NCBI GenBank assembly: GCA_024663395.1
Contig: JANFAH010000032.1
Span: 496,001 to 560,000 of the forward strand
Direction of reading: 5' to 3'
DNA length: 64,000 bases
Origin: Pisolithus tinctorius
Lineage: Eukaryota; Basidiomycota; Agaricomycetes; Boletales; Pisolithaceae
The translations under genes and the position numbers were made by a program. The first letter of the stretch is position 1; the number at the start of each line of letters is the position of its first letter. This document shows positions 12,148-51,006 of this stretch, one piece after another. The notes beneath the pieces were generated by a model. That model made no database searches and was not told the DNA's origin. It saw nothing but the letters and a program-made list of their open reading frames with translations.

Positions 12148-12152
12148 GGTGT

Positions 12153-12441
12153 TGTAATGGTGATGTGAAGTTATAAGACTTGCAACGACACCACACCAGG
12201 ATTCTTCTTAAATACTACTCGTTTCCAGAGTGAAAGGTCTGTTTGATTCAAGGTAGAAAAGAGAGTCCCCGTACAGTATGCTACATAGGCCATTTTATAG
12301 GTTAGAGAGCAGGCACGAAATATGTCAGAGTACTGCTACGGGTAAAGTAGGATCAAGAAACAAATGAGATGATAAGTAAGACTGTCATAGAGAATTCACC
12401 ATCTGAACAAACGGTTGACAGTGTCAGACCGAGTCCTTACA
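12153..12441 (-). repeat. 3' LTR (left) of the chromovirus
   Basis: 289 bp, TGTAATGG..CCTTACA on the plus strand. It matches 21,420-21,708 with no gaps and 11 transitions, each at a CpG position. It is preceded by the GGTGT target duplication. Confidence 0.97.
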
Positions 12442-12452
12442 TTCCCCCCTCC
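12442..12452 (-). other. Polypurine tract of the chromovirus
   Basis: On the minus strand GGAGGGGGGAA sits directly before the 3' LTR, as expected for the primer of plus-strand DNA synthesis in LTR retroelements. Confidence 0.85.
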
Positions 12453-12488
12453 AGGGTACAAAGTACCCTTTCTTCGTGTAAAACTTGC

Positions 12489-13637
12489 TTACAAAGCAGT
12501 GTCCCCGGCACTTCCCGCGGTCTCGTCCTGGGGCATCGTTTCATCAACTTCACCCTCCACATCTGCTATGCCGTCGTAATCCTCTCCGTATTCCCCTTCG
12601 TCATCCGGGCCATCGAAGACACTGTCGACGCTTAGATGGTTAATCGTGATATGAGTAGGATCGGCGAGGGTGTCGAAAGGGGGATCCATGTCTAAGGTAG
12701 AGGTCGAGGAACTAGCAACGGTGGCACTCTGACGATTATCAGCAGTGGTTTTAGGTGCCTCGCGACGCCTGCTTGTACGCGAGGTCTCATGATGTCTACT
12801 GGTCCGAGGCCTCTCTGATCCTTGTGTTCTAAACAGCGACGAGTTGGGACGATCACCCAGGGGCCCCCTTGTATGACGATTGTCTCCTCTACGATCTTGG
12901 CGGTCCTGATAACCTCGCTGGGAGCGATTGCACTGGCATCTAGCCCTCTCTGCTGCGTCCCAGAGCAGGCTATTCAATGTCTCAGTCTCTGCAGCATTGA
13001 GTACCTGCCCGCCCTCTATCTCTTCCCTGCTACACAGGTCAGCATCCACTCCCAGAACTTCCTCCCTAGTTGGGGCTGGGCCCGTGATGACAATGTGATG
13101 TCCCGTGCCAGGTTCAAGGTAAGCAAATCACGACCTCGTAGTGGCTCTATGGTGGTAAGCTTCCCTGAACTGACAATATCCAGCAGGGATGTCAAGGGGA
13201 TCTCCCTTGTTTCGCCGCAGCGCTCTGTCGTACACGAAGAAGGACCGAATCTGCTCACAGTGAACCAAGAGTCACTCCTCTGTCTGCCCAGGGCCGGAGT
13301 CAACCCAGATGACAAAATAATCAAAGCTAGTCCGTTCAATGGAATGACTTTGGGCAGGGTTCGACATAGTGGCGGCCTGATGACGTCTCGTGTCAAGTGA
13401 GTGGTTGATAGCTAAACTCTGTAGCTCGCTAACGATGTTGGACAGGGTGCTGTGGAGCGTCACTAGATTTTCAGGGCTGATGACGGGTTGCCTTGCAGGC
13501 CAAGATATCAAGGGAGCGGGGTGCAATTGGCGACATGCCCTCTTCAGGTAGGAGGTGGTTTTACGGGCGTAACAATGACAGTGGGAGTCACACTTGCATC
13601 CCCTGGGCCTGGAGGTGTATAATGCTTGTGAGTTGGA
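12489..13637 (-). pseudogene. C-terminal tail of the chromovirus polyprotein beyond the chromodomain
   Basis: The frame that carries integrase and chromodomain continues here, interrupted by TGA at 13638-13640, 13272-13274 and 13128-13130, and ends at TAA-side position 12489. Each TGA would be CGA with one C-to-T reversal at a CpG. The tail is about 490 residues counted from the chromodomain, first rich in Pro, His and Ser, then containing LVTLHSTLSNIVSELQSLAI and an Arg/Ser/Thr-rich and finally acidic end (DDEGEYGEDYDGIADVEGE). I know no domain for it. It could be a polyprotein extension or, in an intact copy, a separate product. Confidence 0.7.
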
Positions 13638-15869
13638 TCATGTATGCAAACCTGAACGTAGGTGGGCTCGACGAGGGTGACCCGAAGGGCGGCATGAATG
13701 GTTATAGGGACGACTCGAAGACGCAGGAGGTTGGTTGTGTTTAGTGGGGCAATGAGGGTGGTACGGACGAGGATGGGTCTTGGGTTGATGATTTTGAGAG
13801 TGGGAGGATCCAGCTGTAGTGGGGTGTAGGTGAGTGGATGGGGACCTCCAGTTGGGACATGAGTGATTTAAATGGGCCCCACAGATATGCGGTGTCAAGT
13901 GTCCTATGAACACCTGGGAGTCGTCGTCTGACGAGCTCCCATTGCTCTTGTCCCTTAAATTTTCAATCCCATCAACCCCAATGGCCTCGAAATAATCGGT
14001 AAGCGCTTTCAGGTGCGCGACCTCGTCGTAGGGTAACCACGTTCGATCTCCAGCTGTCCACTTCACTTCGAACTTCGCATCTGATCGGCTGCCACGATGG
14101 CTAATTATCTGGTCGACAGCCCATTCTCGGTTTGTCCCTCCGAGTTCCGGAATCTGATCGTCTTTCCATCCAGGGAACTTTCTATCGTTGTTAGGTATGT
14201 GCACCCTTAACAATGATGAATGAAACACGTCATGAATACCTCTTTGCTTTAGGTTATCAGGTAATTCAACACGATAAGAATTATTCCTGAAGTCATCCGA
14301 AATGCGGTACGGTCCAATGAATTTCGGTATGAGCTTTCGCGATGTCCCCCTTGACAAGCTAATATTCTTGGTGGAGACGTACACGAGGTCACCCGTAACA
14401 AATGGGCACACTCAGCGCTTTTTATTAGCACCAACCACTTGTTTCAATCGTGCCTTTAGGATTGCGTCATGGGCGTCCAACAGAGTAAGTTTCATTTTAT
14501 TGGCAAACGCTCTCACGCTTGGGTATTCATCTCTCATCGGGGAGTCCCAGATCATCCATCGAGGCATCCGTCCAGTGTTCAGGAAGAACGGTGCATAACC
14601 AGTTGACTCTGATGTTGCGTTATTGATTGCAAACTCGATGGCAGGTAGTCGTGACACCCAGTCCTTTTGATTCGGCCCGATGCAGCATCTCAGCATCTGG
14701 GCAATGGTTCGGTTGGTGCGTTCCGTAGCGCCATCTGTTTCTGGGTGGTATGCACTCGACATTTTCTGCTTAATCCCAATTAGCTCATTTAGGTGTTTCC
14801 AGAAGGTACTAGTGAACAGGACGTTGCAGTCGCTAATGATCGCTCGAGGTAAGCCGTGGTGTTTATACACCTTGGCAAACATTAATTCTGCTACTTCACG
14901 AGCAGTATAGGTTGTTCGGCTCGGTACGATGTGCACCATGGAAGTTAGCAAATCGATAATCACCATTATCAAGTCATACTTGCCGTTGCGGTCTTTGGAC
15001 TCTGGGAGCGGTCCCACAAAGTCTACTCCAATCGATTCCCAAGGTCTGGATGGTACAGAGAGTGGGTTTAGTAGTCCGAATGGCTTGTGGGTTGGTGGCT
15101 TGCTCCGTTGGCAAGTCTGACATGATGTACAGTATGCGGTGATATCTTTCACCATAGAGTCCCACCACAGGAATTCACGAATATATGACACCGTCTTTCT
15201 GGCGCCTAGGTGGGCGAGCAAGGAGTGGGCATGGTTGATGATGACCTCCCTAAGTTGTTTGCCGTCTACCTCAATATCAGGTATGCAGAACACGGTGTGA
15301 TCCGGGAGTTTCAGACTGATGAATCCATCAGGCATGATATTGAAGTTCTTGAAAGCCTGTGGGTCCTCGATGATCCGTTTGAAGAACGGGTCCCTATCAT
15401 ACTTGTGCTTAGTGGCTTTGAGTATCCCTTCGCTTCCTGGGTATACAACCAATGGTACCCTAGTCATCGGTGCCCTCGTTATGTCACCTTCTGACATGAG
15501 TTGCCCCGTGTCCGGCATAGGGATCCGCATGTCATGCATCGTGTTTACAGCATGTGTGTCCTCAGGTGGGGGACGTTCACTGTCCTCATCCCCCTTCCTT
15601 CGTTCACCTGGGCCAAGAAGAACGAAGCGATTCTTCATTCTCCTAGCAAATTCGATACCGGTTTCAGGCCAGCCAGTCTCCGCGGGCGGTGTTGGAGGGC
15701 GACGATGGCGCATGGTCACTCTCTTGGTAGTGGGCTGAGTAGGCGCATCCTCCGTACGCTCACATGTGTCATCCGCACTGCTCATTGCAGCAGGCAGCTC
15801 CCCCTCCATAGGTCGCTCCTCAATGCTCGTTGGAGAGGGCATCACCGGAGGTTTCAGCACTAATCGCAA
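13638..15869 (-). pseudogene. Chromovirus integrase and chromodomain
   Basis: The integrase has the HHCC zinc-binding N-terminus (HAHSLLAHLGARKTVSYIRE then CTSCQTC), and the DDE core with D in GVDFVGPLPES, D in IISDCNVLFTS and E in HPETDGATERTNRT. After a TGA at 14412-14414 the same frame gives GDLVYVSTKNISLSRG and then a chromodomain (WAVDQIISHRGSRSDAKFEV, KWTAGDRTWLPYDEV) that would target insertion to marked chromatin. It lies in a different frame from the RT part. At their junction (about 15,870) this frame has a further TGA at 15870-15872, so a one-base indel near there is likely. SDCN in place of the usual SDRN fits a CGC-to-TGC change at a CpG. Confidence 0.92.
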
Positions 15870-17935
15870 TCAGTGCACAGAGGATGGTCCCCTGCCTTGG
15901 GCACTTTGGGGGAGTCACTCGGTGAAGTGTCTTCCGGTTGTTTCACTGTTGCCCGCGCTTGGGACCTGGTGGACATCGCCATCGCTTCGACACCAACATA
16001 TAAAGGTGCACTGATGATTTGCTGACGTTCCTCTGTATTGGCAGACTCCTCAATCTCTAGGTCATGATGCAGATATTCGCTGGGTGCACGGATAGTCCCT
16101 GGCACATCAAATTCATACATCTGAGATAGAGTGTCTGGGAGGATGTTATCGACACCAGGTACGTGTTTGATATCAAAGTCAAACTTGGCCAGTTTCTCTA
16201 ACCAGCGTGCTTGTCTCCCAGACAGGTCTTTCTGTTCCAGCAAGTACATCAGACTCTTATGGTCAGTAACCCACGTGAAGTGAGTGCCCTGCAGTATATC
16301 CCGGTGCCTTAACATCGTTTCCACCCCAGCAAGGAGCTCTTGCTCATGAATGGGGTAGTTACGTTGAGCTGACAACATCTTTGCAGAGTAAAAGGTGGCT
16401 ATCTTTGCGGACTTCCAGTCCTTCCCCTGTGCAATTACTCCGCCTATTCCATTTCCGCAGGCGTCGGTCATAACCCAGATGGGTTTGCGGTCAGGTCTGT
16501 ACTCCAAGGGAACGTGGCTGTGACTTGCACAGGTGGCAACGTATTGTTTCACTGTTTCAAACGCTCGCTGCTCAGTAAATGTCCACCGGAAGGGACGAGT
16601 TTCAGCGCTTGCTTCTGCTAGCACACCCAAAGGTACGCAGACTTTGTAGATGTTGTCTGCCAGGTAGCCTACTGACCCAATAAATCCTTTGCATAACGTC
16701 CGGTTGGTGGGGACTTTCCAGTTGAGGATCTGATCAACCTTTTCAGGATCCATTTTTATTCCATCATCAGTGACGACGCGACCCAGGATCTTCACTTCGT
16801 CACACAAGAAATGAAGTTTCTTCTCGCTCAGGTAAAGTTTCTCCCGTGTGAGGATTTCAAGCACGAGTTTGACGTGTCTAATGTGATCCTCCAGGGTCTC
16901 AGAGTAGATGATTATATCATCCAAGTATATGTCCATGAACGTTCCAACATGTTCCCCAAAAATGTGATTCATTAGGGCTTGGTACGTCGCTGGAGCATTG
17001 CAGTTGCCTTGCTGGACTACCAGACTGACCATATTTCCGTCTGGGGTCATAACAGCCGTCCTTTCGACATGCTCAGGGATCACCCAAATTTGTTCATATG
17101 CATCGGCTCCATCAATGATCAACCTATATGGCCTCTTGGCCACTCGCCGTAGGATACCATCCATATCGGGCATCGGTGATGACAACTTGCGCGTATTCTT
17201 GTTTCGCTCATGCAGGTCGACCACCACACAGAGTTGCGGAGGGTTCCCTGCCTTTGGTATTAGCAACATTGGGCAAGTGTTCCTTGCCGCAGTTAGTTCC
17301 CAGCGGCCGGTTCTCAAGTAGGCATTTTTCTTTTCCGCCCAAAGAGGTCTTAATGCCTCTGGACATCTTGATGGCCGCCAAGGGTATATTTTCTTTTCAT
17401 CTATCAGTGGGATCTCGTGATTTATGGCTCGGAATGGGGGAAGGGCCATCGCTCCTACTTGGGAGCATAGAGGCTTTGCTAATTCCTGTAAGTACTTCCT
17501 TGCCTTCTCAAGGTTCTCATGGTAAACATCCATTGCATGTGATTCCAGGGTTGAGACCTGCGCTCCTTTCATCTCGGTGGGCGTAACACTTCCCACAACG
17601 ACTCTAGGCGAGTGTAACCCCACCATTACTTTGTGCTGATAGAGGAACAGTGTCCCTAGAATCAGATTGTAGTTCTGCAAGTTCATGACATCGAAGTATT
17701 GTTCGCAGTCAATCCCTTGATATTGGAAATGGGCCTTAGTGCCAAAGTTCACCTTGGACCACGAGCCCTGAACTGTGAGCTGAATGGTGAGAGGTTTCTC
17801 AAGCGAAATACATTTCACTTTCAATTGTTCTGCAAGCGTCACTGACATGAAATCAGCCAGCAATCCCATATCGATCAGCGCACGCGCCGGGTGGCTGTTC
17901 ACGTGCATGACGACCACCAGAGGCTTCGGTATCTT
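15860..17935 (-). pseudogene. Chromovirus protease, reverse transcriptase and RNase H
   Basis: The frame opens after a TGA at 17936-17938. It contains a retropepsin-like aspartic protease (ALIDMGLLADFMS and NLILGTLFL; the catalytic motif is D-M-G rather than D-T/S-G). Then RT follows with VVVDLHERNKNT, IDGADAYEQIW and the catalytic YLDDIIIYS. RNase H follows with MTDACGNGIGGV, HEQELLAGVE and TDHKSLMYLLEQ. It ends at TAG 15860-15862, where the integrase frame takes over. Substitutions such as DLHERN for DLRERN and EQIW for EQIR are those expected from deamination at CpG in arginine codons. Confidence 0.93.
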
Positions 17936-17938
17936 TCA

Positions 17939-18592
17939 TGTGAAATCTTTGGCTATCGAGGAATTTCTCTGTAGGGTCAACTTATCCTCATCATGGACCT
18001 TAACGCCATTCAACTGGATCATGTCATACGGTGCGTCTTTCAACTGATCTGCAATCCCGTTGGTTTCATCATTTCCAGTGCTCTTGAATAGTGCACAGAT
18101 CCCCAGGTCTTCTTCCTCCAGGGGGTCACTGCTCGTTAAGGCTACACATGCACGAAACAGCCTCTTAGCATGCCAATGCACGATGTCAAAGTCCGGCCTG
18201 GAAATCCTTTCCAGCAGGAGGACCAGGCAGGCCGCCAGGTGATAGTCAAGTACGTCGATTGTCGTCTTATCTTCCCTAACACATGCAAATTGTCCTGAGT
18301 TTCCCCCTTCCAGAATTTGAAGACTGTGCTCCTCAAGCTTAGCGATAATGCAGTCCTCAATAGGGCGTCCCATGGGGTTTGATCTCCAGGTCCGCGCGCA
18401 CTCTTGGCGTCTCAGTTCCATTTTCAGGATACCAGCGCGTTCTCCCTTTCGAAACCAGTACCAACTATCAAGTCGGAAAGCAGGGTTCATTAGCAGGTGC
18501 GTTTCGACTGTAATCTCGTCTCCTGGGCCTAATACATCTCGTTCGCTTTCCACAATCATGTGTCAGCCATCCATCAGATCATAGACCAGGAA
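17939..18592 (-). pseudogene. Chromovirus gag-pol linker segment between in-frame stops
   Basis: About 215 codons in the same frame as gag and RT, bounded by TGA codons at 18593-18595 and 17936-17938, with a third TGA at 18563-18565. It reads PAFRLDSWYWFRKGERAG and CIIAKLEEHSLQILEGG. It has no recognised motif, but its position between the zinc knuckle and the protease is the usual place of a low-conservation linker. Confidence 0.75.
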
Positions 18593-21283
18593 TCAGGAGT
18601 CCATATAAGTGCACAACGAGTTCGGGTCATCGCTGGGGTAGCAGATCCCGGATAGTTGTTCCATGGCCCTGTCCTCCAGGGGGTGCCCTAGTTTTGTGCC
18701 CACCCACCAGATTCCACAGGCCTGCTTGCTCCTATAGGCGTAGACATGTATTCCATCATTCAGGGCTTCTTCTTTGGGAATGGTACTATTGCTAGTCTGG
18801 TAGTCTTCGTCATCTGAGACGCTCTCCAGGTCTGGGAGGTCATCGTCAGGTACACCATCATCTTCCTGGATCGTAGGCCCTCGAGCCTGAATGAAGTTCA
18901 AGGATACCTCAGGGCCATGCCTAGACGAACTTGCCAACTGACGTTGGCACTCAATATCTCCAAAGTCGACACCCACACCAAAACTCGTAACGCCTGAGGA
19001 CTTGCCAGCGTTGAGCACAGTCTGACAATCAGGACAATTCCTCGAGAAATGCCCCGACTTATGGCAGATGAAGCATAGGCCCTCTGCCTTGTGGCGTTCC
19101 TGCTCTTCTTTGCTCAGTTTAGGAGTATCACGCTTCCGTTTATCCTGCCATTTGGTGCGCTTTCCTCCTGGGTTGTGATTATCGGGCATTGCGGCTTCCT
19201 TTCGATAGCCTTCGCCTTTAAACTTCCTCTTCCTTTCACGTCTTCGCTTGTGTCCCAACTTATGGGGTTCGGGACTCTCTGGTGACGTGGCAGCACTTCC
19301 CACCATCCGGTGTTTACTCCTTCGTTGTTTAGACCTGTGAGTATAGTCACCAGCAATGGTTTGGGCGATTTCAAGGATCTCTGCAGAGGCCGAGATCTTC
19401 TTTAGTGATGAGACCTCCGGATTCAACTTTTCTTTCCACAGGTCCCTTTGGAGCTCCTTTCGGAGCCCCGACCAAAACTTGTGGACCTTTGTGCGTTCAT
19501 TGGTTTCTCCAATCATGTTCCATAGCTCATTGAGCTCATACAGGTAGTTCCTTACTGTTTTGGAGTTTTGATAACATGACTGCAGTTTCTCCCTTTGCTG
19601 CATTCGGAAATCAATGGGGAAACAATAGTTGAATAGTTGCATAAAGAAATCTGAGAGTCTCCACTTGTAAGGATCCCCTGAGACTTCCCGCACATAAAAC
19701 TCATGTGCCTTACCCGTCAGGTAGTGGGATAGGATGAACACACACTTCTTGGGTTCGACTCGACCATCTGTAACATATGCGGCCCCTTCGGTAATGAACC
19801 GTTGAAAGGCATGTACGTTGTCAGACCCATCATATTTATTCAGCAGGATGGGCTTAAGAGTCGTCCTGCGACGAGATTTCGAACGCTTCTTGGATTTGTG
19901 TTTCTTTCCCTTACCACTCTTGCGGCGTCGGGATCTACCACGTTGGTGGCTCGAGCTGCTTGACGACCCACCCAAACTTAACAATGATTCGCTGGTTGTC
20001 GAAGAAGAATCGTCATCGCTCGTGCCAGAATAGCTGGATGGATCACTACTGGAGTTTGACGATATGGAGTCATCATTCAAGCTCTCGCTCGTGGTAGATG
20101 CAGACTCAGACGAGCTGGTATCATCGTCACTTGACGAATCTGAGGTGTGCTTCGCCTTCCTTTTATTTTTGGATCTTTTGGAGCGCTTCTCATCCTTTTC
20201 AAGGCACTTAAAGGCGAGTCCAATGTAGCTTTTTGGATTGATTTGTTTTACAGGCTCCATAGCCCTCGGTGTCTTCTGTCGTTCACGCCTCTTGTGATCT
20301 TGACGGACAACTTTATCAACCATCTCCTTTATCGGGTTTGGGGGTTCTCTCAAGGGTTTGGTCACCCTCTTCTTGTTTTTCTTCGAATGCTTTAGCTTAC
20401 TCCTCTTAGGGATCCACTCATCTTCCCTGCCATGCGGTTCTGGGAGTTCATCCTCAGTGGGTTGTGTGGTGCCCTCCGGATCATTCCCCTTTGACGGTCC
20501 AGTTTGGTCACCATCGCTCTCATTTGCCAATCTATTAGCAGCGTTCCACGATGCAAGGGCTGCACATTGCGCATCTGGGTCTATCTCATTCTCGCTAAGT
20601 TTCAGGTTCCCCCAATTCCTAGGATTGGGTCCCTTTCCCTTGCATTCACCCTTAGCGGAGGGCTCATCACTTTCTGATGAGGTCACTTCAGGGTTATCCC
20701 TCGTCATCAACAACGACCTCCTCTGGATTTTCTCTCGTTCATCCAGGGTCAGTTGCCATTCTGCCCTTCGGACGGCATTTGTCTGGTCTGGCCTTAACAT
20801 GCTGTGGGCTCGTCGCTCACGCAACTTCTTATGCACCACCTCTGTCCAGTCATTCTGCTCCACTTCCATATCACTCGTTGGGAAGATGGATAAAGAGTTG
20901 CAGTGGACATTATCAGGTAAGACATTGTTCGTACTATGAGTCACTACTCGGACTCTAACAGTATGAGCCTGTGAGGCCTCCGGGACTCCAATGTCACCGG
21001 GACACACCGGCAAGCTAGTCCTCAAGCCGGGAACGTCAACGGTAGCACCTTGGGGCACTGGACTAGGGCTCCTCAAGCCAGACCTTACCACATCGCTATA
21101 GCTCCGGATGTTACTAGCGGTGGGTTTTTCAATTGGGGTAGAGTACTGACTCCCGAGCAGGGTCAGCTTCGGTAGAGGGGACACACCAACGATCTCAGCA
21201 CCAGGCTGAGTCGTTGGGCTTTGGGGTAGGGATGAAGCTCGAGTGCAGGTGCCTCGGCGTGCAGTAGAACAGGTATTAACCAT
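18593..21283 (-). CDS. Chromovirus Gag with CCHC zinc knuckle
   Basis: An 896-codon frame starts at ATG 21,283 and ends in TGA 18593-18595. The N-terminal half is low-complexity and charged, with a Ser/Asp tract (SSDSSSDDDTSSSESAS) and a basic patch. The retrotransposon gag domain follows (VEPKKCVFILSHYLTGKAHE, KLQSCYQNSKTVRNYLYELN). A CX2CX4HX4C knuckle CFICHKSGHFSRNC comes near residue 740. Gag would form the particle and bind RNA. The large N-terminal extension is longer than in most Ty3 elements. This frame is itself unbroken; the terminal TGA is probably a mutated CGA because the next codons stay in frame with pol. Confidence 0.92.
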   Translation of the reverse strand: MVNTCSTARRGTCTRASSLPQSPTTQPGAEIVGVSPLPKLTLLGSQYSTPIEKPTASNIRSYSDVVRSGLRSPSPVPQGATVDVPGLRTSLPVCPGDIGVPEASQAHTVRVRVVTHSTNNVLPDNVHCNSLSIFPTSDMEVEQNDWTEVVHKKLRERRAHSMLRPDQTNAVRRAEWQLTLDEREKIQRRSLLMTRDNPEVTSSESDEPSAKGECKGKGPNPRNWGNLKLSENEIDPDAQCAALASWNAANRLANESDGDQTGPSKGNDPEGTTQPTEDELPEPHGREDEWIPKRSKLKHSKKNKKRVTKPLREPPNPIKEMVDKVVRQDHKRRERQKTPRAMEPVKQINPKSYIGLAFKCLEKDEKRSKRSKNKRKAKHTSDSSSDDDTSSSESASTTSESLNDDSISSNSSSDPSSYSGTSDDDSSSTTSESLLSLGGSSSSSSHQRGRSRRRKSGKGKKHKSKKRSKSRRRTTLKPILLNKYDGSDNVHAFQRFITEGAAYVTDGRVEPKKCVFILSHYLTGKAHEFYVREVSGDPYKWRLSDFFMQLFNYCFPIDFRMQQREKLQSCYQNSKTVRNYLYELNELWNMIGETNERTKVHKFWSGLRKELQRDLWKEKLNPEVSSLKKISASAEILEIAQTIAGDYTHRSKQRRSKHRMVGSAATSPESPEPHKLGHKRRRERKRKFKGEGYRKEAAMPDNHNPGGKRTKWQDKRKRDTPKLSKEEQERHKAEGLCFICHKSGHFSRNCPDCQTVLNAGKSSGVTSFGVGVDFGDIECQRQLASSSRHGPEVSLNFIQARGPTIQEDDGVPDDDLPDLESVSDDEDYQTSNSTIPKEEALNDGIHVYAYRSKQACGIWWVGTKLGHPLEDRAMEQLSGICYPSDDPNSLCTYMDS

Positions 21284-21391
21284 TTCTTTTTTGTTAAGTG
21301 TTTTCGGATACTTACTCGAGTGTCGACAGGGGATCAGCCTGCAGATGGTTGAGAAGGTATCGAAGGGGTTTGTTTAGAGTTCGAGTTTTCT

Positions 21392-21409
21392 TTTGACCGT
21401 TTGGGACCA
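21392..21409 (-). other. Candidate primer-binding site
   Basis: On the minus strand, 10 nt inside the 5' LTR, TGGTCCCAAACGGTC begins with the TGG that pairs with a tRNA 3' CCA. The spacing is larger than usual and I cannot name the tRNA. Confidence 0.4.
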
Positions 21410-21419
21410 GAAAAAAATA

Positions 21420-21708
21420 TGTAATGGCAATGCGAAGTTATAAGACTTGCAACGACACCACACCAGGATTCTTCTTAAATACTACTTGTTTCCAGAGTGA
21501 AAGGTCTGTTTGATTCGAGGTAGAAAAGAGAGTCCCCGTACAGTATGCTACATAGGCCATTTTATAGGTTAGAGAGCAGGCATGAAATATGTCAGAGTAC
21601 TGCTACAGGTAAAGTAGGATCAAGAAACAAATGAGATGATAAGTAAGACTGTCATAGAGAATTCACCATCTGAACAAACAGTCGACAGCGTCGGACCGAG
21701 TCCTTACA
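21420..21708 (-). repeat. 5' LTR (right) of the chromovirus
   Basis: 289 bp, same length as the left LTR and followed by the target duplication GGTGT. It retains CpG at seven of the variable sites where the left LTR shows TG or CA, and the reverse holds at three; at one further site both are altered (TG in one, CA in the other). Confidence 0.97.
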
Positions 21709-21713
21709 GGTGT

Positions 21714-27683: not shown

Positions 27684-27741
27684 TGTTATCAAAGGGTTAG
27701 TGGAGTCGAGAGTCAAAGATATACAGCAGTACAACACCACA

Positions 27742-30278
27742 ATGAATTACATGGTCAACATGGTCTATGGAATGACAGCTGGCGGATATGATCGAAACAC
27801 TAGAAGACAGTGGGGAACACGAGTTTTTGTGACAACGGAGTCCATCCCACCGGCATGGGTTCTAAAACGACTGATGCCTCCAAGTTGGCAACTACTACGG
27901 TTTTGTGGCCCTCTTGGTAGTGCAAGCCGTGGGAACCTTCTCTTGGACGACGACAACGACGACGACGACGAGGATGCAGCCAGCACCCAACAGCAGACTC
28001 GGACTGGGCATGCGACCACCACTGCCATCCTACGGGCAGGGCCGTCCATCTCAGCACTGGCTCAGCAACAACAGCAGCAACAAATGCTACACCAGCCATT
28101 CCACATCATGGCGCCACCAACTCAGAAGCAGACAACCTTGTTCGTAGGGTCGATATCAGGCGGTATATCAGACGACGTTCTCAACAGACTGCTCGGGGTG
28201 CGTGGATTAACGACGACGACGACGACGACGCCCGCTGACCCTGCAGTGTGTCTGACCAGGCATGCGGTCCAATGAAGGCTTTCAAACGTCTCATCACTCC
28301 AGCCAACAAACCACAGGGCTTCGGATTCGTCGAATACGAAGACCCAGACTCGGCAATAAGGTGCATCAATCTGCTCAATGGCGTCGAATTGCCAGCGCTC
28401 GAAGACGGCTGCGCGAGCAAAAAACTACTGGTGTGTCCTCGTCAATCCTTCTCTTAGCCCATTTCAAGCCTACGCCTCCCATGACGATTCACAGATCAAA
28501 GCCGACGAAAAGACTAAACTTTTCATGGACGCTTACTCTGCACAGAAAATGAAAACAGACGTGGGTCGTATCCCGTTCGTGCCCCTGCGCCGATGCTAAA
28601 TGGTTTCAGGCTGACGAAGCAAAAGTGCAAGAGGCCCTCCAAAAAATCACCTCCCTTGTCGAAGATATCAACCGCAGCTCACAAGACGCCGCAAATCGTG
28701 GTCTGATCGACAAAGAGCGCTACGTCATCCCGCCCCACCTCCATGACCTCCAGGAGGCAGATCTACCAGAAGGTCAACGCGGCCTCGTCATCTCCGAGAT
28801 TGCCCAGTTCAGAGAACGTGCCGCAAAGAGGGAACGCGAGAAAGTCAGGGAAGTCAGAGAGAGCATACCGCATATACTCTCTTCGACCGCTACGACACCG
28901 AGCGGACCCAAGATGAGGGAATGGGGCAAGCCACAGCAACAACAAGCATCTACATCCCCCGGCGGAAAGAGTCAGCAGCCACAAGGAAAGGGTTCTCAGG
29001 CTTATAGTAAACCGGTCGGTTTCGTCAAGGCTGAAGATGCAGGGGCCGCTACTGGCTCGTTGAGCACTGGGCTTAAGACGGATGAGGAACTCGAAAAGGA
29101 GCGGAGGGAAGCCAGGAGACGAGATGAGGAACTCTCCTTTAAAGACGTGAGTCCTCAGATAGACTCGTCGTGCTTTGACGGACGCTAACTTTTGTTCAGC
29201 GAGAGCGTCGATACGAACCTCGAGAGCGAGCTCGTATTGCAGCCCTCGAACGGACAATTGCACGACAGAACGCCATCAAGGAAGCTGAAGAACGTGATCG
29301 GGTAGAAATGCAAGCACGACTAGACGTCTGGGACGACGACGAGAGTGACGAGCTGTACTACGTAGACAGGTGCGCCATTCGTTTGAACTATCACATATAT
29401 CGTTTATTTATATACATGATGTGCACCTCAGGGCCCGATGGCGACAAACCCGGTCACGTCGACTAGTCGCAGAGGAAGCTGCAGACGGCGAGTCCCGTGC
29501 GTACGAAGAACGCGAAGCAGAGAACCTCCGTATCGAATCCGAGAAGTTCCTCGCCCGCCAAATGGAAGATATGCAAGCGCTGGCAGAGGAACAGCGCAAA
29601 GCGGGGATGTTGCTTGATGACGGTGCACCGGTCAAACTCAACGTCTCATTGCTTGGTCCTGCCCCTGTCAACAAATTGGAACCGCCATGCTCAGAAGGAA
29701 GTCGTCAAGGGGGCTGCAGCCGTGTTTGGGCAGGAAGAGGAGGAGGAGGAAGGGGGGATTAAGAAGCGGAAGGTGCCGTTGGTCAAGCTCGACTTCAGTG
29801 CTGCGGAAGGCGAGAAGGCAAAGGAACGCTTGGAGACGATTAAGCAGTCCGTTCCGCACGATAAAGAAACGCTATTCAAGGCCAAAGTCAGATGGGACGG
29901 TCTCACCGACGTACGTCTCTCGTGTCAGATCACTTTTTTGATAACACTTACATTGTTTTTTGTTCAGATGATGATCGACAGGAAGTTTGAGCCAATCATC
30001 AAGCACCGGATGGTTAAGTATCTGGGTGAACTCGAAGATGACGACCTAATCATGTTTGTGGTCGAACATCTCAAGGATCACAAGGGTCCTCAGAAGCTCG
30101 TCGAGGGTCTCGAACCTGTACGCATATACACTCACATTCGTTGGTTCATCTCACCATTTCGACGCAGGTCTTGGAAGAAGAAGCACAGGAATTCGCGATC
30201 AATATCTGGAGGCAAGTCATCTTTGAGAGCATGGCTTATGGCGAAGGACTTCAAACCGAGCGAATGACGGTCGACTAA
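27742..30278 (+). CDS. RBM25: RBM25-like splicing factor (RRM and PWI domains), copy A
   Basis: Exons end or start at 28197, 28260-28430, 28495-28560, 28610-29146, 29200-29369, 29432-29910, 29968-30117 and 30168-30278 (TAA). The RRM reads TTLFVGSISGGISDDVLNRL and PQGFGFVEYEDPDSAIRCIN. The middle has the SEIAQFRERAAKREREK block and long Arg/Glu-rich helices. The C-terminus is a PWI domain (MIDRKFEPIIKHRMVKYLGE, EFAINIWRQVIFESM). The family belongs to the U1 snRNP-associated splicing machinery (Snu71 in yeast). The frame upstream of the RRM stays open to 27,742 but is low complexity (Asp and Gln runs), so the true start is uncertain. The exon 29432-29910 is one base too long: CCGCCATGC near 29,687 against CCGCATGC in copy B. 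That is a frameshift or a base-call error. Confidence 0.88.
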
Positions 30279-31256
30279 GCGGATGAGGATGGGAGGACGA
30301 CGTTGATTCTTTGCGCCGACGGTACCTGCAGGGCCAGGTGCGTTGTAGCATTGGCATGATGTCTGCTAAAAGGTTGCGCGTGATCTCGAAGACTTATGGT
30401 CCGAATGCATGCTGTAGGAATGGAGAGTGGGTGGTGGAACGAGGGGTGTGACGATTGATATGATGATGGCAGCGATAATGAATCCATGCGAATTCAGATT
30501 CAGGTATTCGTAAGTACGCCCTTGACTAATTTTATCTCGAATGATATACTTCTCTCTTCTTTCCCTCCATGCAAAACGCGAAAAAAAAAAACCGTTATGT
30601 TGAATGAGGGGAAAATGAATTGTTTGAGCTGCGGTCAACCATGTGATAAGTGTTCATCACCTTTTTTTCCCCTTCCCCCCTGTAACTGCTTGAATATATT
30701 GACCGTAGCACCTTGACCTGAGACCAATTCGGCCGCGTCTACCACCCAAAAGGCGCAAGTACATAATTGACAAGGATTGTATGGCAGTGCTTCAAAACGT
30801 TTTGGCCAGTGATATGGGTGGGATCTGGAGTGCGCCGCCATGTTGAGTTCCACCGCCGTTTTTGGAAGTTGCGCCTATCAGAATGTCTTTGATCATCTAC
30901 ATCACGCTATAGCTCGTCCTCATCATCCAGTGCACTGTGCTTTGGAAGGATCGTCGATGTGCGTTCTTGTAGTAGTCCCATGGTTGTATTGGTACCAAGG
31001 TAAGTTCCGCTCACTAGTCATTGTGGTCATACATCATGAGGTGAGCACGCTCGATCGCATGGTATGCTTCGCGTTAATGTGAATAGTATGGGAGATAACT
31101 CTCTCGAGCTTTTCTTGTCGTGTAGTGCGGGCTTTTTTCGAAGGATCGCCGAGCGCTTATGTGGTAGTCTCGTGATCATGTCTGCGAGAGGTGAGTCCCC
31201 CTCAGCGTCAATTGTTGTCGAGCATAAATGGAGTTCCTCCGGTAAAAGTGATGTGT
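30279..31256. other. 3' flank of RBM25 copy A, no gene
   Basis: Sequence shared with the second copy (45,524-46,486). It contains polypyrimidine and A-runs and no recognisable protein. Because it was duplicated with the gene, it marks the extent of the copied block. Confidence 0.5.
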
Positions 31257-41189: not shown

Positions 41190-42990
41190 CGAACTGCGTT
41201 CGAACTCGGGCGTCTCCCCTCAATAACCAATTGCTATTTACCCTCAACGATCTACATGCCTGCATGCGTCTCCTCAGTCTCCTACGAGCTCCCATCTGTA
41301 TATATGCGATAGTTCGAACGGAAAAGTAGATCGGGCATGCACACCAACGCTGTTTACATGTCGAGTTCGGCGTTTTACTACGGGTGGGCGAAGGAGAACA
41401 AGGTGTGTTCAAGGGTGGTCGAGAAGGTTACGAAGACTGGTTTCCTAGTGCCATCGTCAAGGCTGGGCACCCCACACTAGAAAGACCATCAACCTCTGTA
41501 ACTCTACGCAATCCTCGTTCCAGTCTCGTTGCCAATGCCTGACGCAGTATGGCGACCTGACGTCTTTGGAAGCCTCTTGCCGTCGGTGGCAGGGGGCGGA
41601 TGCCGAAGCAATTCGTCAAGGCCACCGCTGCGCTGCGGGCGGCTACACACGCAAAACACACTGATACTTGCCCTTGGATGTACGCGCTCCAGTCCTGTTT
41701 CCCATGCAGCAACACTCACTCCATAATCTTTTGTACATATCCTCAGCACTCACTTGTGTTCGTCATAGATACGGCCAACGCTGAAGAAACTGGCGGTGGG
41801 TGGCGAATCCGGTTGCCCCAAAGCCTCCATCGCAAACTCTTGTTTTCCCTCTAGCAACTACCGCGCAGCACCGTTACAGGAGGATCAACCCAGCTCTCAG
41901 CCTTCCGAGCACACCTGTCCGATTAAACTCACGCATCCTGAAAAAATCAAGCCTTTCAAACTTTGGAACTTGCTATCCACCCGTTAGCAGTCGCAGTATT
42001 ATTTCAAGGCTCGCACAATAATCGTTGTAGCCAGTAGTTATAGAGATGTCTAGACCGCCTCCCCTGGCTTCATCATCTGGGAAAGATTCGTTACCTGTGC
42101 GGAACGGGAATAACGATACAAACGATCCACACGTCGTCGTTCTGGTTGCTTTACTTCGTATCGGTGCCGAGTGCCTTCCGCCGAACGTGACTGGATATCG
42201 GCTTAGGCCGCCGACTTCGTCCCGATGAAAGGAGAGATGTAAGATGCGAGGAGTTGACTTGCGCTAGTCTCCCGCGCAACATTACTATGATGACGTCTTC
42301 GTGGGGAATATCATGTATGGTACATCAGCAACGGCTCACCCGAGACTGGGAAACACCAACGGCGCTGGGACAAGCACTATCACACTGTAGGACACACTTT
42401 TAAGGAGCTCGGAAATATTAGATGCGGAGATAGCTAACGACTTCCGAAAAAATACGACATGCATGTGTATGCTATTACAACCAAGCAAAAGAAACTTTAG
42501 CTTTCGACAGTGAGGAAATGCGTTACAAGAGCAGTATGTTCAAGTGTAACAAATGCGCTGCAATGCCGGCGATGTGAGATATTACCCAGGTGTACCCTGA
42601 TATCATAACGAGAACTTCTGTCTTCTCATACTCCTTATAAGAATAGCCGATTGTGCATGGGCTGTCTCGCCAAAGGGTCAGCCTGCTGGGATTCGATTGA
42701 GTAAAGTGCACAGGTAGAGCTACTCTCACCTTCGCTGTGTACGTGGATCCCAGCCGTTGTCGTGTTTACAACAGTTACGCATGATAGTGGCATGACCTAC
42801 TTTGGGTGATTAGCATCCAAGGACCTGCCCTTCCATGAAGGCCTACTTCATGGTTGCCAGGAGAAGGGAGACGGGCGGAGAAGTTGGCGTGGCGGGTTCA
42901 GCGCTGCAGGTCAGATGGAAAGACGCTTCATCACAAGGCAAGTTTATCAGCCACACAGGAAGCTTACCAGAAATAATTGAGAGGTAAGCC
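41190..42990. other. No gene seen
   Basis: CpG-normal sequence. Open frames on both strands around 41,430-42,230 are short and match nothing I know. The second RBM25 segment starts at its right end. Confidence 0.45.
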
Positions 42991-45900
42991 GAGCCGAGTG
43001 TCAAAGATATACAGCAGTGCAACACCACAATGAATTTACATGTACAGTACGGACTATGGACTTACAGCGAGTGGGTCTAAGCAATATCAGAAGGACAGTG
43101 GGGAACAGGAATTTTTGTAGCGATGAAGTTCATCCCACCGGCATGGACTCCATCATCACAAAACCGATCGCGACCATGATGCCGTCCGAGCTGTGAGTTT
43201 TGTGGAGCCCTCAGTAGTACCAGCCGTGGGAACCTTCTCTTGCACGACGACGACGACGACGAAGCCTGCACCCAACAGCAGACTCAGACTGGGGATGCGA
43301 CCACCGCTGCCATCCTACAGGCAAGGGCCGTCGATCTCAGCACTGGCTCAATAGCAACAACAGATGCTACACCAGCCATTCCACATCATGGTGACACCAA
43401 CGCAGAAACAGGACAACCTTTGTCGTAGGGTCGATATCAGGCGGTAGGTCAGACGACGTTCTAACAGACCACTCGGGGTACGTGGATTAACGTCGTCGTC
43501 GTCGCCGGCAGACCCGCATTGTGTGTGACTAGGAATGTAGTCCAATGAAAGCGTTTTCAAGTGTCTCATCACTCGAGCCAACAAACCACAGGGCTTCGGA
43601 TTCGGTGAATACGAAGACCTGGAGTCGGCATTAAGGCTGTATCAATCTGCTCAATGGCGTCGAATTGCCAGCACTCGAAGACGACTGCGCGAGCAAAAAA
43701 CTACTGGTGCGTCCTCGTCAATCCTTCTCTTAGCCCATTTCAAACCTACGCCTCCCATGACGATTCACAGATCAAAACCGACGAAAAGACTAAACTTTTT
43801 CATGGACGCTTACTCTGCACAGAAAATGAAAACAGACGTATGTCGTATCCCGTTCGCGCCCCTGTGCCGATGCTAAATGATTTCAGGCTGACGAGGCAAA
43901 GGTCGTGAGAGGCCCTCCAAAAAATCACCTCCCTCGTCGAAGATATCAACCGCAGCGACAAAGAGCGCTACGTCATCTCGCCCCACCTCCATGACCTCCA
44001 GGAGGCGGACCTACCAGAGGGTCAACGCGGCCTCGTCATCTCCGAGATTGCCCCAATTCAGAGAACGTCCCGCAAAGAGGGAGCGGGAGAAAGTCAGGCA
44101 AGTCAGAGAGAGCATACGCATATACTCTCTTCGACCGCTACGACACCGAGCGGACCCAAGATGAGGGAATGGGGAAAGCCACAGCAACAACAGGCATCAC
44201 ATCCCCCGGCGGAAAGAGTCAGCAGCCACAAGGAAAGGGTTCTCAGGCTTATAGTAAACCGGTCGGCTTCGTAAAGGCTGAGATGCAGGGCTGCTACTGG
44301 CTCGTTGAGCACTGGGCTTAAGGACAGATGAGGAACTCGAAAGGAGCGGAGGGAAGCCAGGAGACGAGATGAAGAACTCTCCTTTAAAGACGTGAGTCCT
44401 CAAATAGACTCGTCGTGCTTTGACGGACGCTAACTTTTCTTCAGCGAGAGCGTCGATACGAACCTCGAGAGCGAGCTCGTATTGCAACCCTCGAACGGAC
44501 AATTGCACGACAGAACGCCATCAAGGAAGCTGAAGAACGTGATCGGGTAGAAATGCAAGCGCGACTAGACGTCTGGGACGACGACGAGAGTGACGAGCTG
44601 TACTACGTAGACAGGTGCGCATTCGTTTGACCTATCACATACATCGTTTATTTATATACGTGATGTGCACTTCAGGGCCCGATGGCGACAAACCCGGTCA
44701 CGTCGACTAGTCGCAGAGGAAGCTGCAGACGGCGAGTCCCGTGCGTACGAAGAGTGCGAAGCAGAGAACCTCCGTATCGAGTCCGAGAAGTTCCTCGCCC
44801 GCCAAATGGAAGATATGCAAGCGCTGGCAGAGGAACAGCGCAAAGCGGGGATGTTGCTTGATGACGGTGCACCGGTCAAACTCAAACGTCTCATTGCTTG
44901 GTTCCTGCACCTGTCAACAAACTGGAGCCGCATGCTCAGAAGGAAGTCGTCAAGGGGGCAGCAGCCGTGTTTGGGCAGGAAGAGGAGGAGAGGAGGGGGG
45001 ATTAAGAAGCGGAAGGTGCCGTTGGTCAAGCTCGACTTCAGTGCTGCGGAAGGCGAGAAGGCCAAGGAGCGCTTGGAGACGATCAAGCAGTCCGTTCCGC
45101 ACGATAAGGAGACGCTATTCAAGGCCAAAGTCAGATGGGACGGTCTTACCGACGTACGTGTTTCGTGTCATATCGCTTTTTTTATAATGCTTATATTGGT
45201 TTTTGTTCAGATGATGATCGACAGGAAGTTTGAACCAATCATCAAGCACCGGATGGTTAAGTATCTGGGTGAACTCGAAGATGACGACCTAATCATGTTT
45301 GTGGTCGAACATCTCAAGGATCACAAGGGTCCTCAGAAGCTCGTCGAGGGTCTCGAACCTGTACGCATGTATTCACGCCTCAACTTTGCTTCATCTTATA
45401 GTTTCATCGCAGGTCTTGGAAGAAGAAGCACAGGAATTCGCGATCAATATCTGGAGGCAAGTCATCTTTGAGAGCATGGCTTATGGCGAAGGGCTTCAAA
45501 CCGAGCGCATGGCGGTCGATTAAGCGGATGAGGATGGGAGGACGACGTTGGTTCTTTGCGCCGACGGTACCTGCAGGGCCAGGTGCGTTGTGCATTGGCA
45601 TGATGTCTGCTAAAAGACTGCGCGTGATCTCGAAGACTTGTGGTCCAAATGCATGCTGTAGGAATGGAGAGTGGTGGTGGGACGAGGATGTGACGGTTGA
45701 TATGATGATGGCAGCGATAATGAATCCATGCGAATTCAGATTCAGGTATTCGTAAGTACGCCCTTGACTAATTTTATCTCGAATGATATACTTCTCTCTT
45801 CTTCCCTCCATGCAAAACGCGACAAAAAAAACCGTTATGTAGAGAGAAAATGAATTGTTTGAGCTGCGGTCAACCATGTGATAAGTGTTCATCGCCTTTT

Positions 45901-46486
45901 TTCCCCTTCCCCCTGTAACTGCTTGAATATATTGACCGTAGCACCTTGACCTGAGACCAATTCGGCCGTGTCTACCACCCAAAAGCGCAAGTACATAATT
46001 GACAAGGATTGTATGGCAGCGCTTCAAAATGTTTTGGCCAGTGATATGGATCTGGAGTGTGCCGCCATGTTGAGTTCCACCGTCATTGTCATTGGAAGTT
46101 GTGCCTATTAGAATCTCTTTGATCATCTACATAGCGCTATAGCTATTCTCGTCTCATCATTCGGTGTGTTGTGCTTTGAAAGGATCGCCGAGCGTTCACT
46201 GTAGTAGTCTCGTGGTCGTGTTGGTAAGAAGGTAAGTTCCGCTCACTGGTCATCGTAGTCATGCATCATGGGCGGACACTCTCGGTCGCATGGTAGGCTT
46301 CGCGATTATGTGAACAGTATGGGAGATAACTCTGTGGAGCTATTCTTGTCATGTAATGCAGGCTTTTTTCGAAGGATTCCTGAAGCGCTTATGAGGCAGT
46401 CTTATTCTCATATTGGTGAGAGGCGAGTCCCTGTGAGCGTCAATTGTTGTCGAGCATGAATGGAGTTTCTCCAGTAAAAGTGATGT
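42991..46486 (+). repeat. Segmental duplication, copy B
   Basis: About 3.5 kb similar to 27,703-31,256 in the same orientation, with many single-base indels. Its right end coincides with the start of a CpG-poor transposon block. Confidence 0.9.
43340..45523 (+). pseudogene. RBM25-like, copy B, disrupted
   Basis: All parts of copy A can be followed: the RRM region (PANKPQGFGF-like sequence near 43,575-43,620), the SEIAQFRER block (about 44,035-44,080, with an extra C), the Arg/Glu-rich helix exon, and a PWI region (from 45,211) ending ERMAVD at 45,523. Relative to copy A there are many one-base insertions and deletions, for example in the RRM around 43,400-43,480, at 44,279 and near 44,884-44,903. 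No single frame remains. The PWI exons are nearly unchanged. Confidence 0.88.
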
Positions 46487-47559
46487 CACCAGTTCACCTC
46501 GTGATTGTACATATGTCCATGTGATCTTTGAAAATTTTCCTCTTATGAGTGCTTGGCTATTTTATGGTTGCAAGTGATATTGGGTAGGTGCTTCTCATCT
46601 CCCAGTGATCATGGGTATTTGTGTTTGTGAAACATTCCTGTTGAAAGTTGGACAATTGCTGTGCATGTTGGTGTAATAATTTTGGTAGACAAAACAGGAT
46701 CCAATGTCATGTAGTGTGGTGATGCTTAGTCACAACATATGGGTAGCCTGCATGCCAAAACACCATTACTCATGTAGAGCCCAGGGCAGGCCTGTCAGAA
46801 TAGTTCAGCCATAACAAATGAATGAGCCTGTGGGCCCAGAGTGACAGCAATGTGTGAGCAGGCCCATGAGTGGGTGATTGCTACATATGGGTGGGCCTGT
46901 GGAGGGTACAGTAGTGGAAAGCTGGTGAGGATGTCCTAGTTTGAGGTTTTCCTCATCTAGCTGGAACTTTATGATGACCCTGATGCAGTAGAGTTCCCCA
47001 GACCAGTTTTAGAGGAGATTTGATGAGTGGAAAGGCTATATTCAGAAAGAAGATGGATATTTGCTCTAGCAGAGGCAAAAATGCATTTCTTGGTGAAGTA
47101 GGGTTGGCTGAGTGAGTTCCAAGCCATTTATATGGCTCAGGATTATATGCATTCCATAATCAGCCAAGTTTAAAGCACAACATCATGCTCAAAAAAGTGT
47201 CCCAATGACATGTCATTTTAGAATGGTTATATTGCAGTGCCATGGCAACCAAATTACATGAGCAAGCCCTTGTTATAAAGGCAACAGTTAGTGCTGTTGG
47301 AGTGAAATGACTCCAATCCATGTACGGACATAGGCACATGAGTGCATCACTTACATAAGCACTTAGAGTGCACAGTACACTAGTAAATTTTACCATAGTC
47401 CCTCAGTAGCTTGTCAAACTACTGAGGTCTCTTATGGATTCTACTGGTTAGGAGGCCCAAGCTTGAACTCTGATTGCAGAAGACTTGTGAAGCTACCAAA
47501 AGTCCATACAGCTAATTAAGAATTGTGCCTACACTCACAAAGGACATCCACAACTGGAT
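46487..47559. other. CpG-poor repeat debris
   Basis: Contains the second arm of the dispersed inverted repeat (46,955-47,310). Otherwise no gene is seen. Confidence 0.5.
46955..47310 (-). repeat. Dispersed repeat, arm 2 (inverted relative to 32,520-32,945)
   Basis: Reverse-complement similarity to 32,520-32,945, including the block around AAGAAGATGGATATTTGCTC and the block around CATCATGCTCAAAAAAGTGT. Confidence 0.7.
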
Positions 47560-49789: not shown

Positions 49790-50160
49790 TGTCAAGTGTC
49801 ACAACCATGCATTTATCCCAAGTCCCTACTCACTCTGCACCCTACTCTGCCAGTCATTCACTCACTCCACACCAACTCCACCTGCCCTCTACCATTTATG
49901 AGCCTTCTCCACTCTGTCTGCTGTCAGACTTGTACTGGTCTACTGTTGGACCATGCAGACTGTCCCCCAAGAGGTCATGTGACCTTCCTTTGGCCTTCTC
50001 CTTGACACTGCATGGTGAGGTACTCTGCAGTGCATGCACCTCATGGTTCAGCACCTGGACTGTTTCCTTTTGGGTCTGCTGTATGTTTCTCCATCTACCC
50101 TTCATTCATTGTCCAGGAAGTTTTACTTATGTAGAACATCTCCATGGGACCATGTACTGA
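49790..50160 (+). repeat. Partial LTR of the 0.73-kb family, reverse orientation
   Basis: Reverse complement of the second half of the LTRs at 51,007 and 60,219. It starts at TGTCACAACCATGC, the complement of the usual GCATGGTTGTGACA end. Confidence 0.75.
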
Positions 50161-50239
50161 AATGTCTACATGGATGCATCAAAATTGTCATGACAGTACC
50201 TCAACCCCAGCCAGACTCACCCTCACATTCATCCAGTCT

Positions 50240-50986: not shown

Positions 50987-51006
50987 TTAGGGGGAGGCTG
51001 TGCATG

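What the first reader, a model, noticed from the sequence alone, without database searches (positions are those of the whole stretch)
12153..21708. All 11 differences between the two LTRs are transitions at CpG sites
The 289-bp LTRs align without gaps. I count 11 mismatches, and each is C/T or G/A within a dinucleotide that is CG in one or, at one site, inferably both copies (TG in one LTR and CA in the other). No transversion and no non-CpG transition is seen. Mutation since insertion has therefore been almost wholly CpG-directed, as expected from cytosine methylation and deamination or a RIP-like process with CpG preference. LTR divergence here cannot be read as an ordinary clock.
Basis: seen in the sequence. 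Interest (0 to 1): 0.87.

Follow-up and report, generated by a model that had tools for sequence, protein, structure and literature searches.

The report
CpG-only decay of a fungal retrotransposon
The two end repeats of a retrotransposon in a fungal (likely mushroom-class) genome differ at 11 positions, all C-to-T-type changes at CpG sites, most likely because methylated CpG in mobile elements here decays an estimated 150 times faster than other bases, so ordinary dating by end-repeat divergence would mislead.

Summary
Observation confirmed: the 289-bp LTRs align without gaps and differ at 11 positions, all transitions, in 10 of the family's 14 CpG sites. The element is a Ty3/Gypsy-type retrotransposon coded on the minus strand, TSD GGTGT, in a 92.5-Mb genome whose protein relatives point to Agaricomycetes.

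A pattern search found 46 LTR places. In 16 TSD-matched pairs (15 exact, one with a C/T mismatch) 90 of 102 differences are CpG transitions. CpG dinucleotides are lost about 300 times faster than another base changes (95% CI 179-582; about 150 per CpG position); one ratio roughly fits young and old copies. Within the element, losses fall on both strands, unclustered, without TpCpG preference. Flanks keep CpG up to the LTR edges. A duplicated 3.5-kb host-gene-like segment in the same window is spared.

Best reading: transposon-confined CpG methylation (DNMT5-like and DNMT1-like genes are present) followed by steady CpG-to-TpG decay, rather than homology-triggered RIP. Methylation itself could not be tested. 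CpG decay of basidiomycete transposons is already published; the rate, the age series and the spared duplicate are the additions.

The parts
12148..12152 (.). target-site duplication GGTGT, left
12153..12441 (-). LTR (3' LTR in the element's sense), 289 bp, 7 CpG left
12442..21419 (-). internal region of the Ty3/Gypsy-type element; together with the LTRs, 301 of 711 CpG sites (CpG in at least two of three other copies) are no longer CG, 296 of them TG or CA
13638..14411 (-). open frame with Tf2-1-like SH3 domain (PF24626)
14412..15869 (-). open frame with integrase zinc-binding domain (PF17921) and a sub-threshold integrase core (PF00665)
15860..17917 (-). open frame with aspartyl protease, reverse transcriptase and RNase H domains
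17936..18559 (-). open stretch of 207 aa, in the same frame as the gag and reverse-transcriptase frames by its coordinates; no Pfam match
18593..21283 (-). open frame with Retrotrans_gag domain (PF03732)
21420..21708 (-). LTR (5' LTR in the element's sense), 289 bp, 8 CpG left, 96% identical to the other
21709..21713 (.). target-site duplication GGTGT, right
27695..31254 (+). control: host-gene-like duplicated segment, copy A, CpG o/e 1.04, spared
   Evidence: weak PWI match below cut-off
42983..46486 (+). control: duplicated segment, copy B, CpG o/e 1.04; a 600-bp piece has 13 matches in the genome, itself included
47001..62000 (.). CpG-poor DNA with old repeats and an integrase fragment: 55 CpG in 15 kb, o/e 0.065

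Best explanation
The 11 LTR differences are most likely the product of steady CpG-to-TpG decay that is confined to transposons and predicted to follow their CpG methylation by DNMT5- and DNMT1-type enzymes, with the resulting thymines presumably repaired poorly. Shown: all differences are CpG transitions; 90 of 102 are so across the family's 16 TSD-matched pairs; the CpG loss rate is estimated at about 300 times the per-base rate elsewhere (about 150 per CpG position); hits are scattered on both strands; no site shows both strands hit (no TA among 711 sites); CpG density is normal right outside the LTRs, and a duplicated host-gene-like segment is spared. Inferred: that the CpGs are 5-methylated, that DNMT5 and DNMT1 do it, that deamination (spontaneous or enzyme-assisted) is the chemistry, and that the process is steady. 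The 4 in-frame stops that were classed are of the CGA-to-TGA type, so the decay also breaks the element's reading frame.
For: LTR alignment. 16 TSD-matched pairs: of 224 site comparisons 135 CG/CG, 58 lost on one side, 31 lost on both (16 with opposite strand states, 15 with the same, as expected for independent hits, p = 1.0), against 12 differences in 4178 other positions. Ratio 309 (180-582) (179-574); 250 (143-486) if same-state double losses are dropped; 330 (148-921) without the two oldest pairs; 279 (160-529) without the window pair. Flank comparison of the loci found only C32 and C91 sharing both flanks, so the pairs look like separate insertions. All 602 cells at the 14 CpG sites of 43 full-length LTRs are CG, TG or CA. 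Whole element: of 711 CpG sites 410 kept, 168 CA, 128 TG, 0 TA, 5 other; no strand runs (138 same-state neighbours, 149.8 expected), no clustering. Non-CpG coding differences from another copy sit mostly at third codon positions (80 of 116), so they largely predate insertion under selection; CpG differences are more even over codon positions (19, 22, 29%). 4 of 4 classed in-frame stops are CGA-to-TGA. CpG o/e 0.68-1.22 in 15 of 16 flanking 300-bp bins. Duplicated host-gene-like segment: CpG:other ratio 1.7. DNMT5-like gene matches PDB 7r76 at 1.9e-73; DNMT1-like gene with BAH domain.
Against: No methylation data. The CpG:other ratio exceeds by about tenfold what I recall for mammalian methylated CpG (10-15), so plain spontaneous deamination may need help. 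CA exceeds TG 168:128 (p = 0.023), CpG hits have an excess at third codon positions (p = 0.003), a following-base preference (p = 0.0003) and a weak preceding-base effect (p = 0.036), so part of the change may predate insertion or be context dependent. Against two other full copies the whole-element ratio is only 15.7 and 17.3, which I put down to subfamily divergence. The fit of one ratio to all ages was looked at but not tested, and the CpG losses per pair leave gaps (0-0.04, 0.21-0.46, 0.86). CpG-normal repeats compared are only three pairs in one window, and only one of them was looked at for gene content.
Confidence: 0.72

Rival explanations
1. A RIP-like, homology-triggered mutator with CpG preference acts on repeated DNA during the sexual cycle; copies of different age have been through different numbers of rounds.
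For: Strict C-to-T change in repeats, extreme excess over other mutations, stops created in the coding frame. Multiple rounds could hide strand polarity. The CpG losses per LTR pair leave gaps (0-0.04, 0.21-0.46, 0.86), as rounds might.
Against: A 3.5-kb segment duplicated 15 kb apart at 89% identity, with relatives of 95-99% on contig C15, keeps CpG o/e 1.04 and a CpG:other ratio of 1.7. No strand runs or clusters in the window copy. PF00145 gave 3 places; the two that were examined are DNMT5-like and DNMT1-like, the third has the DNMT1 score and was not examined; the search can miss genes split by introns.
Confidence: 0.2
2. Ordinary mutation plus chance: the LTRs are short and 11 changes happened to fall in CpG.
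Against: Chance 7e-12 for this pair; family-wide odds ratio 87, p = 5e-81.
Confidence: 0.01
3. Sequencing or assembly error: base-calling errors at methylated CpG, or mixed repeat copies, mimic CpG transitions.
For: Contig C91, a second version of this locus, is noisy (frequent small indels) and carries an internal sequence unlike the window copy.
Against: The window copy has only 2 indel events against one other full copy (19 against another). Pairs with zero difference and pairs with many coexist in the same assembly. Old repeat pairs that also carry other mutations have lost CpG almost wholly, which errors would not do.
Confidence: 0.05
4. The two LTRs differ because ectopic gene conversion brought in another copy's LTR, not because of mutation in place.
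For: The C91 version of the locus shows that internal sequence can differ between versions with identical flanks.
Against: Conversion would often import subfamily-diagnostic non-CpG variants; the two LTRs have none between them, though such variants exist in the family. Seven further pairs show the same CpG-only pattern.
Confidence: 0.02

Closest known systems
CpG-signature decay of transposons in basidiomycetes with a Masc2-type DNMT1 and no RID (Amselem et al. 2015, PMC4352252; passages read)
   Same: C-to-T at CpG only, in transposons, explained there by methylation followed by deamination.
   Different: There measured as share of copies with a bias in Microbotryum, Melampsora and Puccinia; here measured in LTR pairs of one family in a likely Agaricomycete, with a rate ratio, an age series and a spared duplicate. 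A DNMT5-like gene is present too. Whether the DNMT1-like gene is of the Masc2 class was not tested.
CpG hypermutation in Tricholoma matsutake repeats (PMC6980582; passages read)
   Same: Agaricomycete, CpG-biased C-to-T in repeats, masc2 present, rid/dim2 absent.
   Different: No LTR-pair rate or test of duplicated host DNA in the passages read.
CpG-biased hypermutation between nuclei of Rhizoctonia solani AG8 (PMC4014442; passages read)
   Same: Agaricomycete, CpG-to-TpG.
   Different: There genes and repeats are hit alike and CpG is about 40% of C-to-T changes; here a gene-like duplicate in the window is spared and CpG transitions are 90 of 102 LTR differences.
TpCpG RIP-like hypermutation in Microbotryum (PMC5381629, passages read; Horns et al. 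2012, seen only as cited)
   Same: CpG-containing target, Gypsy elements.
   Different: No preference for T before CpG here; T is the least hit context.
Neurospora RIP (as described in PMC5381629) and the Dim2-dependent mitotic mutator of Zymoseptoria (PMC8016269, passages read)
   Same: C-to-T in repeats linked to a DNA methyltransferase.
   Different: Both act on CpA; in Zymoseptoria methylated CpG is not hit at high rate, the opposite of this case.

Membership tests
Ty3/Gypsy LTR retrotransposon | LTRs with TG..CA ends and a short target-site duplication | tested here: met
   TGTAA...TTACA ends, TSD GGTGT
Ty3/Gypsy LTR retrotransposon | gag, protease, RT, RNase H, integrase in that order | tested here: met
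   Pfam matches in order on the minus strand; integrase core below its cut-off, its zinc-binding domain above
Ty3/Gypsy LTR retrotransposon | primer binding site next to the 5' LTR | not tested
   no search for a matching tRNA end was made
CpG decay after methylation (basidiomycete type) | excess of C-to-T at CpG over all other changes in transposons | tested here: met
   90 of 102 LTR differences in 16 pairs; ratio about 300 per dinucleotide
CpG decay after methylation (basidiomycete type) | CpG methyltransferase genes in the genome | tested here: met
   DNMT5-like and DNMT1-like with BAH; activity and class not tested
CpG decay after methylation (basidiomycete type) | 5-methylcytosine at the element's CpGs | not testable with these tools
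   no methylation data
RIP (Neurospora type) | preference for CpA | tested here: not met
   all 11 in the window, and 90 of 102 in the 16 pairs, at CpG
RIP (Neurospora type) | triggered by duplication of any DNA above about 400 bp linked (about 1 kb unlinked) and 80% identity (thresholds as cited in PMC5381629) | tested here: not met
   linked 3.5-kb, 89% duplication spared (ratio 1.7); a linked 0.9-kb pair at 79.6%, at the limit, has ratio 1.1
RIP (Neurospora type) | RID methyltransferase | tested here: inconclusive
   PF00145 gives 3 places, 2 examined and not RID-like by structure-sequence matches; intron-split genes can be missed
TpCpG RIP-like process (Pucciniomycotina) | T before the CpG | tested here: not met
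   hit rate 0.167 after T, 0.246 after A, 0.231 after C, 0.201 after G

The most novel reading that the evidence does not exclude
Probability: 0.27. Interest if true: 0.68.

Novelty: new member of a known kind. Interest (0 to 1): 0.42.

Why it matters
If the reading holds beyond this family, LTR-divergence ages in such fungi would be far too old for young insertions and non-linear for old ones; with CpG sites set apart, the 14 CpG sites per LTR would resolve ages at which ordinary sites show nothing. The spared gene-like duplicate helps to separate a methylation-driven process from RIP in a group where both are discussed. The size of the ratio makes it testable whether 5mC decay in mushrooms is merely spontaneous.

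Tried and rejected
C91 as an allele. Contig C91 holds the same flanks and TSD. Between C32 and C91 there is no substitution at 11022-12152 or 21709-36161, while the element has 365 (287 CpG transitions, 59 other transitions, 19 transversions). Of the 287 CpG changes, 272 have the CpG in C91, 10 in C32, 5 undirected. At first this looked like an element-bounded mutational burst. Rejected: C91's sequence differs from another full copy by only 31 substitutions, at its gag stretch it is 88% identical to the window copy and so of the other lineage, and C91 carries many small indels. It is either ectopic conversion or misassembly, so the C91 pair was left out of the rate estimate.

Loss of uracil/thymine glycosylase as the cause. 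PF03167 gave no match, but a UNG model then found UNG exons at three loci, so the first result was a miss, probably because of introns, and nothing is concluded about TDG. HhH-GPD proteins: 9 places. TET/JBP: 150 places listed, all but the last over the cut-off, role unknown.

Strand-polar RIP footprint: looked for, not found. Searches for an LTR-pair CpG rate in fungi: searches returned 0 papers, searches listed 3 and 2 papers, none on this point by title and abstract; so I found no prior rate ratio, within these searches only.

Dropped before the rate estimate: two C37 pairs (TSDs swapped between two inverted elements) and the C91 pair, out of 19. Kept although its TSD has one C/T mismatch: the pair C11:318947/339526. 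8 of 46 LTR places had no partner; 3 partial LTRs were left out of the site table. In one search only stops inside the three frames scanned were classed; a further frame end at 13638 and the frame change near 15860-15869 were not.
Full report
Check of the observation. Columns 9 and 10 are the TG/CA case; 35 of 43 full-length family LTRs have CG there. The ends are TGTAA...TTACA and both sides carry the TSD GGTGT. Chance of 11 of 11 in the family's 28 CpG positions is 7e-12.

What the element is. Reading the minus strand, the open frames carry gag (PF03732), aspartyl protease, RT, RNase H, integrase zinc-binding and Tf2-1-like SH3 domains in the Ty3/Gypsy order. The frame is broken; 4 in-frame stops inside the three frames scanned are TGA where another copy has CGA, while a further frame end at 13638 and a frame change near 15860-15869 were not classed. 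Another copy of the family keeps one long uninterrupted frame, and 3 of the 16 TSD-matched pairs have identical LTRs, so the family was probably active until recently.

Where it sits. The window is part of contig C32 of a 92.5-Mb assembly of 221 contigs. In the 120 best of 1286 relatives of a host methyltransferase-like frame in the window, the organisms that are named are nearly all Agaricomycetes as far as I recall their taxonomy (Mycena, Stereum, Laetiporus, Trametes and others), none of them close enough to name the species, so the host is likely a mushroom-class fungus. The genome holds a DNMT5-like gene (C5-methylase and SNF2 parts side by side; PDB 7r76 at E 1.9e-73, listed as Rad8; that this entry is Cryptococcus DNMT5 is recalled) and a DNMT1-like gene with a BAH domain on C3; a third PF00145 place with the same score lies on C59. 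It also holds TET/JBP domains at 150 listed places.

Family-wide test. A pattern search found 46 LTR places. 19 pairs were formed; 92 of their 104 differences are CpG transitions, in 504 CpG positions against 4991 others. 16 pairs were kept (15 with exact TSDs, one with a single C/T mismatch in the TSD): 90 of 102. Three pairs are identical, 8 differ only by CpG transitions (35 of them), 5 have both kinds. Apart from C32 and C91, no two loci share both flanks. At the 14 CpG sites, 135 of 224 comparisons are CG in both LTRs, 58 lost on one side, 31 on both; the 31 split 16 opposite to 15 same, as independent hits on either strand predict. A two-rate model gives a CpG dinucleotide loss rate about 300 times the per-base rate elsewhere (95% CI 179-582 over two runs), about 150 per CpG position, and 250 to 330 under three variants. 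Non-CpG counts expected from the CpG-based ages are near the observed ones (for example 3.3 expected and 4 and 3 seen in the two oldest pairs, 1.05 and 0 in the window pair, 0.75 and 0.84 expected with 2 seen in each of two others). A steady process therefore suffices, though no formal test was made and the losses per pair leave gaps (0-0.04, 0.21-0.46, 0.86).

Inside the element. Against CpG sites present in at least two of three other copies, the window copy keeps 410 of 711; 168 are CA, 128 TG, 5 other, none TA. Thus a site seems to stop being a target once it is no longer CpG. The states show no runs (138 same-state neighbours, 149.8 expected) and no clustering; loss per kb is 32 to 48%. 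The base before CpG matters little (p = 0.036) and T is the least favourable, unlike the TpCpG process of Microbotryum; C after the CpG is hit more (p = 0.0003). CA outnumbers TG (p = 0.023), that is, more C-to-T on the coding strand.

Two kinds of difference with two histories. Against another full copy, non-CpG differences in coding DNA lie mostly at third codon positions (80 of 116; 3.8% against 0.9 and 0.7%), so they probably arose in the active, selected lineage before insertion. CpG differences are 19, 22 and 29% by codon position, far more even, as expected mostly for unselected change after insertion, with some older share (p = 0.003 for unevenness). A ranked search shows two gag lineages in the genome, the window copy in one (94-96% relatives on C20, C11, C6, C1, C25), several others, C91 included, at 88%. 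This would explain why the whole-element ratio against two other copies is only 15.7 and 17.3 while the LTR pairs, which measure post-insertion change only, give about 150 per position.

Target and limits. CpG o/e is 0.68 to 1.22 in 15 of 16 flanking 300-bp bins; the sixteenth, at 9753 on the left, is 0.08. Per-kb values over the window fall mostly into two groups, 0.59-1.41 in gene-like DNA and this element, and 0-0.07 in CpG-poor repeats, with intermediate bins at borders and near 54-56 and 62-64 kb. Repeat pairs in the CpG-poor DNA have most CpG positions changed (68 of 74 at 51007/60219; 79 of 98 in the inverted pair at 55-58 kb). A duplicated segment with a PWI-like, sub-threshold match, 89% identical over 3.5 kb and 15 kb apart, has CpG o/e 1.04 and a ratio of only 1.7; two more repeats of untested nature with near-normal CpG give 3.1 and 1.1. 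A 600-bp piece of that segment has 13 matches at 80-100% identity, counting itself, copy A and two on C91. So repetition as such does not seem to attract the process.

Mechanism. The likely chain is: transposon recognised as heterochromatin, CpG methylated and maintained (DNMT5, DNMT1), 5mC turned into T and not repaired in time. Only the last step's product is seen; methylation, enzymes and chemistry are inferred. A ratio of about 150 per position is about ten times the mammalian excess that I recall, so spontaneous deamination alone may not be enough; enzyme-assisted deamination is the bolder reading. A RIP-like process is not excluded but needs an extra rule to spare the gene-like duplicate.

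Relation to what is known. CpG-biased decay of transposons in basidiomycetes is published (PMC4352252, PMC6980582, PMC4014442, PMC5381629; passages read). PMC4352252 ties it to Masc2-type DNMT1 without RID and to deamination after methylation. In Zymoseptoria the Dim2-dependent mitotic mutator hits CpA and leaves CpG (PMC8016269, passages). A kingdom-wide RIP survey (PMC12543289, passages) gave nothing on CpG in the passages found. The present case is a new, measured member of the CpG class. I found no LTR-pair rate ratio in print within.

Limits. One family, one genome, no reads, no methylation data. Genome searches score only the best candidates, and intron-split genes can be missed, as the UDG and UNG searches showed.

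Noticed in passing
window 34773-37080: Tandem array of an 82-bp unit, 28 copies at 77% match, in a stretch almost free of CpG (o/e 0.026 over 32001-37400).
   Followed up: partly
window 8-61742 against G000:C91:46000-115299: C91 is a second version of this locus: no substitution in long stretches but many small indels, a diverged left part with a 7.5-kb length difference, and a different copy of the element at the same TSD.
   Followed up: partly
G000:C37:86980-96535 and 104796-114352: Two elements in opposite orientation whose TSDs are swapped (GGTGA..GCAGT and GCAGT..GGTGA), LTRs identical within each pair: an inversion by recombination between them, or a misassembly.
   Followed up: no
window 27695-31254 and 42983-46486; G000:C15 and others: Host-gene-like segment (weak PWI match below cut-off) with 13 matches in the genome for a 600-bp piece, itself included, 6 of them on contig C15.
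   Followed up: partly
whole genome G000: TET/JBP dioxygenase domains at 150 listed places (all but the last over the cut-off), a very large expansion.
   Followed up: no
window 51007-51738 and 60219-60952: Possible LTR pair of an old element, 9.2 kb apart, 84% identical, around an integrase/chromodomain fragment at 53377-54507; 68 of 74 CpG positions changed.
   Followed up: partly
window 55102-58094: Large inverted repeat (arms 1.1 kb, 89%) with CpG o/e 0.28 in one arm and 0.03 in the other.
   Followed up: no
G000:C5:2421924 and C84:142647; C3:3395720 and C59:292638: Same matches with equal or nearly equal scores on a large and a small contig, which suggests that haplotigs remain in the assembly.
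   Followed up: no
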